37,837 nt of DNA, taken from assembly GCA_903844155.1 (NCBI GenBank), contig CAIMSU010000159.1, positions 1 to 37,837 of the forward strand, given 5' to 3'. Every line of letters begins with the position of its first letter. Positions within the stretch are counted from its first letter, which is position 1. The DNA comes from an uncultured Pseudomonadota bacterium (GTDB lineage Bacteria; Myxococcota_A; UBA796; SXON01). Under the pieces are notes generated by a model. That model ran no database searches and was not told the DNA's origin. It was given only the letters and a program-made list of their open reading frames with translations. Of this stretch, positions 8,918 to 12,070 are shown piece after piece. A program made the position numbers and the translations under genes.

Positions 8918-10579
8918 TCACTCCGGCGTGGAGCGCGACGGGACGACCCACACCCCCCACACAAACACGTTCCGGTCCCGCCCGTCCGGCGCCACGAGAT
9001 CGTCGGCATAAGCGAGACGGAGGACATCGCCCGCGTGCACCGGCCCGAGCGGGAGGTGGGCAGGGCGCGCACGAACGGCGATGACTCGCGCCTCGCCCAA
9101 CCCCGTGATCGTCACGTGAGCAGGCCCGTCGCCGGCTTCGTCCCCGCTCACGGTCAGCTCCGCGTCTCCGTCGACGGGCACGACGTACTCGGCCGACCCG
9201 TTGGAGTAGAACGCCAGCCGCTTCGACTCCTGCCTCACCGCCGCTCCCTCCACGTGGGATGCCGCCGCTCGCACCCCGCCCTGGAGAACCACGATGACCT
9301 CGTCGGGCAGCCGATCGAGCCCGTCGCGCAGGGCTGCCGTCAACCGCGCAGCCTCGTACGCATCGGTGGCCCAAAGATCGTCCGTCAGGGTCCAGCCGCT
9401 GTACCGTCCGACGACAAGCCACTCCGCGACCAGGATCCAGTCGGAAGGCGGCCCGGAATAGCCACGGAGGCCGAACCAGGACTGCCCGATCAGCGCCGCG
9501 CGGACGGGGTGCGCGGTGAGGAGCGGCGTCAGGTCGTCGCCAGACGCGGGATCGAGGAAATGTCGGGCTGCGTCGAGGGTTCCAAGGCCGTCGAGGTCGA
9601 CGATGGCTGGGTCGCCGAGCCAGGCGATGCAGCCAAGCCAGGTGATCGCCACCGGCTCGGGCACGCCGGCGGGAGGCGAGGCAGCGAGGAACTTCGCAGG
9701 TTCCATCACGAACGCGCGCACATCGGAAGCGGCATCCGCCTGCCTGGAAGAGATGGCCCATGCGCGGGCGACCAGCGGCAGGCACGCGAGTCCGACCACT
9801 GCCGCCATGCCGCGCGGCGCCCGCGTCGGCCGCCCCACCTCCCGCAACGCTGCGGCAAGCGCGGCCACCCCAAGGAGCACACCCAACCCGACGAGGTAGC
9901 TGTCGTACCGATAGGTGTCGACGTTCGATCGCGAAAAACAGGCGTGCAACCCCGCTGCGCCCAAGAAGAGCACGGAGGCCGCCCGCGCCTCCTCGTCCCC
10001 ATGCCACCGTCTCCAGACCGCCGCAGCGTTCAGCCCTACCGGAACCAGCCACGCCGCGGACTCGACGCTTCCGAGGACCCTCTCCACCCCACCAAGGCCA
10101 GAAAATACCGGGTTCATCGACAGCAAGAGCCCGATCGGAAGCACCGGCCATCCGTGGGCGTGCGCCACCACGCCGTACAGCACGGCGGGCGCAACCCCGG
10201 CGCCGACGACCGCTACCGCCTCCAACAACCGGCGGTGAAGCACGAGAAGCACCGCGACCCCCGCCGTGACGAAGAGCGCCTCGTACCGCGCCCCCGTCGC
10301 CAGCGCAGCAAGCACGCACAGCGTCCCCAGCTCCCCGCCGCCGATCCTGGCGCTCGGCACACCTCGCGCCAGCCTCGGCGCTGAATTCCCGCAGTTCCAA
10401 GGCCACGAACCCCGCCAGCCGGCGAGTACGCCAGCCGGCACGGTTCGTGCGCGGAACCGCGCGCCGGGGGGCCATTGCCCTGCCCATCCGCGTGAATTCA
10501 GGTACTTCCGCTTCGCTTGTTTGCGGAGCGCCAGCAATGGCCCGCCGATCCTGGCGCTCGGCACACCTCGCGCCGGCAT
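8918..10579 (-). CDS. GT-C-like membrane glycosyltransferase, N-terminus lost to repeats
   Basis: The credible part runs from about 10340 down to 8918 (about 470 residues). It begins inside a typical GT-C middle region (LAALATGARYEALFV, then several hydrophobic helices) and ends with a soluble domain including VDLDGLGTLDAARHFLD, which is reminiscent of the C-terminal part of GT39-like or related membrane transferases. The expected N-terminal helices and the first-loop acidic catalytic residue are missing. Upstream codons to ATG 10579 are merely translated 204-bp repeat; PSARIGG appears twice. The gene is therefore probably a 5'-truncated remnant, although GTG 10315 could give a 465-residue product. 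If active it would transfer a sugar from a lipid carrier at the membrane; without the N-terminus that is unlikely. Confidence 0.6.
   Translation of the reverse strand: MPARGVPSARIGGPLLALRKQAKRKYLNSRGWAGQWPPGARFRARTVPAGVLAGWRGSWPWNCGNSAPRLARGVPSARIGGGELGTLCVLAALATGARYEALFVTAGVAVLLVLHRRLLEAVAVVGAGVAPAVLYGVVAHAHGWPVLPIGLLLSMNPVFSGLGGVERVLGSVESAAWLVPVGLNAAAVWRRWHGDEEARAASVLFLGAAGLHACFSRSNVDTYRYDSYLVGLGVLLGVAALAAALREVGRPTRAPRGMAAVVGLACLPLVARAWAISSRQADAASDVRAFVMEPAKFLAASPPAGVPEPVAITWLGCIAWLGDPAIVDLDGLGTLDAARHFLDPASGDDLTPLLTAHPVRAALIGQSWFGLRGYSGPPSDWILVAEWLVVGRYSGWTLTDDLWATDAYEAARLTAALRDGLDRLPDEVIVVLQGGVRAAASHVEGAAVRQESKRLAFYSNGSAEYVVPVDGDAELTVSGDEAGDGPAHVTITGLGEARVIAVRARPAHLPLGPVHAGDVLRLAYADDLVAPDGRDRNVFVWGVWVVPSRSTPE
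10338..10541 (+). repeat. 204-bp tandem repeat, unit 1 with 10-bp hairpin stem
   Basis: Unit 1 begins CCGCCGATCCTGGCGCTCGG and is followed directly by unit 2 at 10542. The shared core includes TTCCAAGGCCACGAACCCCG and CACGGTTCGTGCGCGGAAC. Near its end, GGGCCATTGC (10469-10478) pairs perfectly with GCAATGGCCC (10534-10543) across a 55-nt loop. Confidence 0.85.
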
Positions 10580-10749
10580 CGGCGGTCAATTCTCACCGTT
10601 CCAAGGCCACGAACCCCGCCAGCCGGCGAAGACGCCGCCTGTCACGGTTCGTGCGCGGAACGGCGGGCTGGGGGCCAATCCGGTTGGCCATCCTCCCAAT
10701 TTCAGGTGGATACGAACGCAATGTTTGCCGAGCGCACGGATTGGCCCCC
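10542..10749 (+). repeat. 204-bp tandem repeat, unit 2 with 13-bp hairpin stem
   Basis: Unit 2 repeats unit 1 from the same opening sequence. Its terminal stem is GGGGGCCAATCCG (10670-10682) with CGGATTGGCCCCC (10737-10749). The stem bases differ from unit 1 on both sides in a compensating way, while the loop keeps AATT(T)CAGGT and TGTTTGC-GAGCGC. It ends 22 nt upstream of the bioA start. Confidence 0.85.
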
Positions 10750-10771: not shown

Positions 10772-12070
10772 ATGGACACCGCCGGGCTGCTGGATCTGGA
10801 CCTGCGCCACGTTTGGCACCCGTTCACGCAGGCCGACGAATGGGCGACGGAGCCGAAGCTGTGCATCGCCAGCGCAGAGGGCGTCGAGCTCATCGACACG
10901 GACGGCAAGCGCTACCTCGACGCCGTCAGCTCCCTCTGGTGCAACGTCCACGGGCATCGAAACCCACGGATCGACGCGGCGATCCGCCGCCAACTCGACA
11001 CGGTCGCGCATACCACCATGCTTGGCCTGACCCACGCGCCTGCCATCGAGCTTGCCGCTCGGCTTTGCGCGCTCACCGGCCTTGACCGCGTGTTCTACAG
11101 CGACTCCGGCAGCTCGGCCGTGGAGGTCGCGCTGAAGATGGCGTTCCAGGCCCAACAGCAGCGACCCGGGGGGAGCGCCCGCACCCGCTTTGCGGCGCTG
11201 GCCGAGGCGTACCATGGCGACACGCTCGGCAGCGTCTCCGTCGGCGGCATCGACCTTTTCCACGGGGTCTACCGGCCGTTGTTGTTCGACTGTGTGCGGA
11301 TCCCCTGCCCCGACCGGCCCGATCCCGAGGCCGAAACGCGCTGTCTGGCGCAGGCGCGCACCTTGTTCGCCGAGCACGGCCCCACCCTCGCCGGGTTCGT
11401 CTTCGAGCCGCTGGTACAGGGCGCGGCGGGGATGAGGATGCACTCCGCCAGCTTCCTCGCCGGCTTGTGCGCGATGGCGCGGGAGGCAGGCGCCCTGCTG
11501 ATCGCCGACGAGGTCGCCACCGGCTTTGGCCGCACCGGGACGATGTTCGCGCTCGAGCAAGCGGGCGTCACCGTCGACCTCCTCTGCGTCGCCAAAGGCA
11601 TCACCGGCGGCTACCTCCCGCTCGCCGCCACCCTCGCCACCGAGGCCGTCTACGACTGCTTCCGCGGGCCCTACACCGCCTGGAAAACCCTGTTCCACGG
11701 CCACACCTACACCGGCAACCCCCTCGCCTGCGCCGCCGCCCTCGCCTCGCTCGACATCTTCCGGGATGACGACGTCATCGCTGGCCTCCGTCCGAAGATC
11801 GAGGCGTTGCGAAACGGGATCCTGCTGATCGACCACCGCACAGTGATCGAGCGACGACAGCGCGGCTTGATGGCCGCTGTGCGCATCGGGCCCTTCGCGA
11901 CAGACGCCCGCGTCCCCCACCGCGTGGCGCTGGCCTGCCGCGAGGACGGCGTCATCGTCCGCTGTCTCGGCGATGCCATCGTCATGATGCCGCCGTTGTC
12001 CATGACACCGGAGCAGATCCGGCGGTGTACGGGCGCTATCAACGCGGCGCTGTCGCGGGTGGTGGGGTGA
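10772..12070 (+). CDS. bioA: Adenosylmethionine-8-amino-7-oxononanoate aminotransferase
   Basis: The 432-residue protein starts at ATG 10772, where the conserved N-terminal block HVWHPFTQ lies about 13 residues in. Class III PLP-aminotransferase and BioA blocks follow: SSLWCNVHGH, FYSDSGSSAVEVALKMA, AYHGDTLGSVSVGG, IADEVATGFGRTG, the PLP lysine K275 in CVAKGITGG, and HGHTYTGNPLACAAAL. BioA converts 7-keto-8-aminopelargonate to 7,8-diaminopelargonate in biotin synthesis, with S-adenosylmethionine as amino donor; it is cytoplasmic. No other bio gene is in the window. The 204-bp repeats lie immediately upstream, and there is no good Shine-Dalgarno sequence before the ATG. The stop overlaps a GTG (GTGA, 12067-12070) that may start the next gene, suggesting an operon with outer-membrane genes. 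Confidence 0.93.
   Translation: MDTAGLLDLDLRHVWHPFTQADEWATEPKLCIASAEGVELIDTDGKRYLDAVSSLWCNVHGHRNPRIDAAIRRQLDTVAHTTMLGLTHAPAIELAARLCALTGLDRVFYSDSGSSAVEVALKMAFQAQQQRPGGSARTRFAALAEAYHGDTLGSVSVGGIDLFHGVYRPLLFDCVRIPCPDRPDPEAETRCLAQARTLFAEHGPTLAGFVFEPLVQGAAGMRMHSASFLAGLCAMAREAGALLIADEVATGFGRTGTMFALEQAGVTVDLLCVAKGITGGYLPLAATLATEAVYDCFRGPYTAWKTLFHGHTYTGNPLACAAALASLDIFRDDDVIAGLRPKIEALRNGILLIDHRTVIERRQRGLMAAVRIGPFATDARVPHRVALACREDGVIVRCLGDAIVMMPPLSMTPEQIRRCTGAINAALSRVVG

What the first reader, a model, noticed from the sequence alone, without database searches (positions are those of the whole stretch)
10338..10749. Tandem 204-bp repeat with a covarying hairpin
Two adjacent units share most sequence, yet the terminal stem is GGGCCATTGC/GCAATGGCCC in unit 1 and GGGGGCCAATCCG/CGGATTGGCCCCC in unit 2. 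Both sides changed together, so pairing rather than sequence is kept, while the loop retains AATT(T)CAGGT and TGTTTGC-GAGCGC. That suggests selection on a folded RNA or single-stranded DNA, for instance a structured ncRNA, a regulatory leader of bioA or a recombination substrate.
Basis: partly seen in the sequence, partly recalled or inferred. Interest (0 to 1): 0.7.

Follow-up and report, generated by a model that had tools for sequence, protein, structure and literature searches.

The report
Mobile three-hairpin repeat between genes
The two repeats are one copy of a small, gene-less mobile DNA element present over 100 times in this bacterium; each unit folds into three hairpins whose sequences change but whose pairing is kept, an unusual but not unprecedented kind of bacterial "jumping repeat".

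Summary
Window 10338-10749 holds two ~204-208-nt units whose H3 stems differ yet stay complementary. It is not a one-off: a covariance model finds 114 copies in this genome, 62 in a congener, 21 in another genus of the family and one fragment in a fourth species, but none in 18 other family members or in the rest of 237 genomes of the phylum. Every unit has three hairpins. Across species 34 of 54 pairs show changes on both sides and 88% of cells pair (32-45% when slid). The unit's ends are imperfect inverted repeats. Copies lie almost only between genes, in all orientations. An ABC exporter gene and a RecB/AddB-like nuclease gene carry in-frame insertions absent from relatives, and one composite copy with a nested 135-bp insert occurs at two unrelated sites. 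So this is a mobile, non-autonomous, MITE-like element, not a bioA leader: bioA orthologues in three congeners lack it. G·U is not favoured over A·C, so an RNA function is unsupported; template switching or selection on folded DNA can explain the covariation. The transposase was not found; RAYT and reverse transcriptase do not fit. New variant of a known kind.

The parts
10338..10541 (+). Repeat unit 1 (H3 type A)
   Evidence: the repeat finder D1; R1 match G000:C159:10338-10544, E 1.4e-32
10542..10749 (+). Repeat unit 2 (H3 type B)
   Evidence: R1/R2 match 10542-10748 (this unit is in the models' training sets)
10339..10380 (+). Unit 1 hairpin H1
   Evidence: MFE fold, covariation
10391..10459 (+). 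Unit 1 hairpin H2 (GTTCC..CACGAACC..GGTTCGTG..GGAAC)
   Evidence: MFE fold; helix replaced with pairing kept in G004, G010 and G014
10469..10543 (+). Unit 1 hairpin H3, variable stem GGGCCATTGC/GCAATGGCCC, loop with GAATTCAGG and TGTTTGCGGAGCGC
   Evidence: not in this unit's own minimum-energy fold
10542..10585 (+). Unit 2 hairpin H1
   Evidence: MFE and centroid fold
10596..10663 (+). Unit 2 hairpin H2
   Evidence: MFE and centroid fold
10670..10749 (+). Unit 2 hairpin H3, stem GGGGGCCAATCCG/CGGATTGGCCCCC
10340..10362 (+). Unit 1 left terminal inverted repeat (GCCGATCCTGGCGCTCGGCACAC)
   Evidence: arm of I1/I3; end-to-end similarity test
10519..10541 (-). Unit 1 right terminal inverted repeat (read on - strand: GCCATTGCTGGCGCTCCGCAAAC)
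   Evidence: arm of I3
10544..10566 (+). Unit 2 left terminal inverted repeat
   Evidence: arm of I2
10723..10745 (-). Unit 2 right terminal inverted repeat (read on - strand: GCCAATCCGTGCGCTCGGCAAAC)
   Evidence: arm of I1/I2
10772..12070 (+). Downstream gene, class-III aminotransferase (bioA-like), starting 22 nt after the array; neighbour, not part of the element
   Evidence: Pfam Aminotran_3 9.5e-98; ORF heuristic

Best explanation
The window holds a head-to-tail pair of a non-autonomous, MITE-like mobile element: ~205 bp, no gene, imperfect ~23-bp inverted ends, folding into three consecutive hairpins. SHOWN: it has spread to over 100 places in this genome and dozens in related species, is found as whole-unit insertions even inside genes (once as a dimer), and keeps base pairing rather than stem sequence. 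INFERRED: a transposase supplied in trans, not found here, recognises the inverted ends and probably the folded ends, as a cruciform or single strand; copies whose hairpins still pair are the ones that spread, and template-switch repair between stem arms may help keep them matched. Insertions in genes are removed by selection unless in frame, so most copies sit between genes. The copy before bioA is one chance insertion; it may affect that promoter but has no conserved role there.
For: R1 finds 114 copies in G000, 62 in G004, 15 in G010, 1 in G014 and none in 18 other family genomes; R2 finds 21 in G010 and no other genome among 237 of the phylum: patchy and high-copy. Insertions against relatives: a G004 ABC exporter gene carries exactly one unit (69 codons, in frame) in a linker where orthologues of G000-G003 have none; a G000 AddB/RecB-like nuclease gene carries a dimer in frame where six homologues have none (PDDEXK_1). 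Whole-unit copying: a composite copy with a 123-nt H1 insert that itself holds a 135-bp nested insert occurs at two places, 94% identical over 332 nt, with identity starting at the element's left end and unrelated flanks. Inverted ends: 15.3/24, 14.0/24 and 15.7/24 matches in G000, G004 and G010 against controls of 8.6-9.7 (sd ~2). Orientation to flanking genes mixed: 17/11/13/9. Pairing: 34 of 54 pairs with double changes, 88% of cells paired against 32-45% slid; the layout is recovered by single-sequence folds in most copies. Private changes: 74 in 418 paired sites, 134 in 411 unpaired.
Against: No transposase with matching ends was found, and no target-site duplication, so the mobilising enzyme and chemistry are unknown. 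No ongoing transposition was seen (single MAGs, no strain pairs). Only two insertion sites could be compared with orthologues lacking the unit. Recombination between copies also shuffles sequence, so some similarity is not transposition. Two of four G010 units, and H3 of window unit 1, do not adopt the three-hairpin layout in their minimum-energy fold.
Confidence: 0.78

Rival explanations
1. Mutation-driven covariation: the element is mobile, but pairing is kept mainly by template switching between arms of imperfect inverted repeats during replication, not by selection on a fold. This can go together with the best explanation.
For: Template switching creates and maintains hairpins with compensatory changes (PMC8794818, found). 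No G.U preference on either strand: private A.C 24 vs G.U 19 (p 0.54), pair types 41 vs 27 (p 0.11), as expected for a DNA-level process. Stems are replaced wholesale between species.
Against: Loop segments (TTTCAG; TGTTTGC..AGCGC) are also kept across three genomes, so some selection acts. The three-hairpin layout is kept, not just palindromy.
Confidence: 0.35
2. Structured RNA: each unit is transcribed and acts as a small RNA or cis-regulator.
For: Strong fold, covariation, fewer private changes at paired sites; the array ends 22 nt before the bioA start.
Against: No orientation or neighbour preference; bioA orthologues lack it; no Rfam family; G.U not enriched on the + strand; patchy presence.
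Confidence: 0.12
3. REP/BIME/REPIN-type element moved by a RAYT (Y1, HUH) transposase acting on ssDNA hairpins.
For: Hairpins, intergenic, mosaic, no target-site duplication seen. G010 has four Y1_Tnp genes and G000 one over the cut-off.
Against: G004, with 62 copies, has no Y1_Tnp match (genome 86% complete). No unit within 1.5 kb of the Y1 genes of G000 or G010. Units are ~5-10 times a REP in length and have inverted ends.
Confidence: 0.1
4. Retron-derived repeats (msDNA-like sequences spread by reverse transcription).
For: Structured ~200-nt repeats; G000 has RVT_1 proteins.
Against: No RVT_1 in G004 or G010, which carry many units; inverted ends and tandem units are not retron features (own knowledge).
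Confidence: 0.03

Closest known systems
Bacterial MITEs (ERIC, Correia/NEMIS, QMITE)
   Same: Gene-less ~100-200 bp, multi-copy, intergenic, inverted ends, stable fold (PMC10969869, PMC2229807)
   Different: No target-site duplication found; three separate hairpins rather than one 5'-3' end stem; GC-rich; pairing kept while stem sequence is replaced between species
Rickettsia palindromic elements (RPE)
   Same: Small palindromic elements also found as in-frame insertions in protein genes (PMC10969869)
   Different: Here only 2 of ~54 examined arrays lie inside a gene; no sequence relation known; ~205 bp with three hairpins
Caulobacter CcrM-associated intergenic repeat (CIR)
   Same: Fold of separate arms joined by linkers instead of an end-to-end stem (PMC2229807)
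   Different: CIR has two arms with a GANTC loop and was not found intragenically; ours has three arms and was
REPINs/BIMEs with RAYT
   Same: Hairpin repeats, intergenic, mosaic
   Different: No RAYT in G004; unit much longer; direct tandem units

Membership tests
MITE | Short (<~500 bp), no gene, many copies | tested here: met
   ~205 bp; 114/62/21 copies
MITE | Terminal inverted repeats | tested here: met
   14-15.7 of 24 matches vs 8.6-9.7 control in three genomes; imperfect
MITE | Target-site duplication | tested here: not met
   No excess of matching flanks over 46 arrays; a fixed CC or 2-3 bp duplication cannot be resolved in this GC-rich sequence
MITE | Cognate autonomous transposon with the same ends | tested here: inconclusive
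   None in the fetched flanks; the whole genome could not be read
REPIN/RAYT | RAYT (Y1_Tnp) gene in the genome, flanked by the repeats | tested here: not met
   None in G004; none adjacent in G000/G010
REPIN/RAYT | 20-40 nt REP palindromes with a GTAG/CGTC tag | not tested
   Unit length is ~205 nt; the tag was not searched for
Retron/msDNA repeat | Reverse transcriptase in the carrier genome | tested here: not met
   No RVT_1 in G004 or G010
Rfam ncRNA family | Match to a family covariance model | tested here: not met
Rickettsia palindromic element | In-frame insertion in protein genes | tested here: met
   ABC exporter and AddB-like gene; rare, so analogy only
Rickettsia palindromic element | Sequence relation to RPE families | not tested
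   RPE sequences were not compared

The most novel reading that the evidence does not exclude
A transposable element whose unknown transposase reads hairpin architecture (three stems with fixed loop motifs) rather than end sequence, so that stems drift freely as long as they pair: structure-addressed transposition by an undescribed enzyme.
Probability: 0.15. Interest if true: 0.7.

Novelty: new variant of a known kind. Interest (0 to 1): 0.42.

Why it matters
It is an unusually clear case where a dispersed DNA element shows covariation as strong as that of a structured RNA. It warns against calling such repeats ncRNAs from covariation alone, and gives over 100 natural copies for testing selection on folded DNA against template-switch mutation. 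If structure guides its movement, the missing enzyme would be of interest.

Tried and rejected
bioA leader (absent at orthologues). Rfam family. Plasmid, phage or viral origin (no hits). RAYT and retron as movers. Composite transposons between neighbouring copies: only ORFs that look like ordinary host genes lie between them. Target-site duplication scan. Longer element with the same ends in the fetched sequence. G.U/A.C strand test: the raw excess of A.C in pooled alignments was not significant once restricted to genome subfamilies and private changes. One search used wrong coordinates; one search timed out; searches had an unbalanced structure string. Paper searches for a described repeat of this kind in myxobacteria found nothing.

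Full report
OBSERVATION. The two units are present as described. Their stems differ on both sides and stay complementary. Both fold more stably than any of 200 dinucleotide shuffles.

COPIES. A BLAST of the region against the window's own genome (G000, 8.1 Mb, 375 contigs) gave 44 matches, many at contig ends, as expected for repeats that break assembly. A covariance model R1, built from 13 units of G000 and G004 (alignment A2), finds 114 copies in G000, 62 in G004 (same genus), 15 in G010 (same family, other genus) and 1 in G014, and none in 18 other family genomes. A second model R2 (41 units) finds 21 in G010 and no further genome in the order (63 genomes) or the phylum sample (237 genomes). 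Over 40 genomes the search uses stricter filters, so weak distant relatives could be missed. There is no match on plasmids, phages or viral contigs or in Rfam.

ANATOMY. Each unit has three hairpins: H1 (unit positions 1-44), H2 (~54-122) and H3 (~130-207, a variable stem closing a ~55-nt loop). The H3 loop keeps TTTCAG and TGTTTGC..AGCGC in three genomes. The unit's two ends are imperfect inverted repeats of one motif, GCC-N5-7-SGCGCTNSGC-W-V-AC; the conserved loop segment TGTTTGC..AGCGC is the right-hand copy. A subfamily carries a 123-nt insert in H1 (at least 11 copies). Units are mosaics: H2 type and H3 type combine in all four ways in G000, so copies recombine.

PAIRING. On A5, an alignment fitted to the structure and therefore leaning towards it, 34 of 54 pairs show double changes and 88% of cells pair, against 32-45% when partners are slid and 76% in shuffles. 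The MAFFT alignment A2 (not fitted) gives 14 pairs with double changes and 89.7% paired. Folding single sequences without an alignment gives the same layout in G000 unit 2, G004, two of four G010 units and, for the part present, G014; G000 unit 1 shows H1 and H2 but not H3 in its minimum-energy fold, and two G010 units prefer other folds. H2 is a different but complementary sequence in each species.

WHAT KEEPS THE PAIRING? If a + strand RNA were selected, G.U should outnumber A.C mismatches. It does not: private 19 vs 24, p 0.54. Private changes are about half as frequent at paired sites (74 in 418) as at unpaired ones (134 in 411). This is compatible with selection on folded DNA or with template switching, which is known to maintain hairpins (PMC8794818). 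I cannot separate the two.

MOBILITY. (a) A G004 ABC exporter gene contains exactly one unit, 207 nt in frame, in the linker between its membrane and ATPase domains; orthologues in G000, G001, G002 and G003 have short linkers without it. (b) A G000 AddB/RecB-like nuclease gene contains a two-unit array in frame; six homologues lack it at that point. (c) A composite unit with a 123-nt insert that itself contains a 135-bp nested insert (with an apparent 4-bp duplication, CTCC) exists at two places with unrelated flanks; similarity starts at the unit's left end. (d) Only those two of ~54 arrays were read as lying clearly inside a gene, with a few more overlapping gene ends; the rest are between genes, in every orientation (17 divergent, 11 co-directional, 13 opposite, 9 convergent; heuristic gene calls). 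No target-site duplication is detectable.

PARTNER. Y1_Tnp is absent from G004 and not near units elsewhere; RVT_1 is absent from G004 and G010. G004 is 86% complete, so absence is not proof. The mobilising enzyme is unknown; its existence is inferred from the copies.

LOCAL CONTEXT. The array ends 22 nt before the bioA-like start codon. Orthologous bioA genes in G002, G003 and G004 have no unit upstream; G004 has a ~24-nt left-end scrap. So there is no conserved leader role; an effect of this copy on bioA expression remains possible.

COMPARISON. It works like a bacterial MITE (PMC10969869, PMC2229807), with an RPE-like ability to sit in frame in genes and a CIR-like multi-arm fold. Because the target-site duplication test was negative and no cognate transposon was found, I call it MITE-like, a new variant, not a proven MITE.

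HOST. One carrier, G014, corresponds to a record titled 'Deltaproteobacteria bacterium TH-Jun18-28'.

Noticed in passing
L131 (CALQBK020000014.1, 48088 bp), same length and unit position as G004:C14: The public record is titled 'Bifidobacterium breve', but the genome groups in the window's genus and carries this repeat; the title looks wrong.
   Followed up: partly
L029:5335-5469 and L133:4907-5041: A 135-bp nested element with ends CAGGGTCAGC/GCTGACCCTC and an apparent 4-bp duplication, inserted in the long form of the repeat at the same point at two loci; possibly another MITE.
   Followed up: partly
L047:2724-2846 and at least 10 other G000 places: A 123-nt GC-rich, hairpin-rich insert in the H1 loop defines a long-form subfamily.
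   Followed up: partly
L180 (G000:C62:1114-1707): Reverse transcriptase preceded by a small ORF that may be an Avd-like protein, suggesting a diversity-generating retroelement; not tested.
   Followed up: no
L015:5385-5409, L033:558-631, L175 upstream of bioA: Solitary left-end fragments (24-74 nt) of the unit.
   Followed up: no
L009:3277 (G000): A hybrid H3 with a type-B 5' arm and a type-A 3' arm, so the stem is broken: a natural recombinant.
   Followed up: partly
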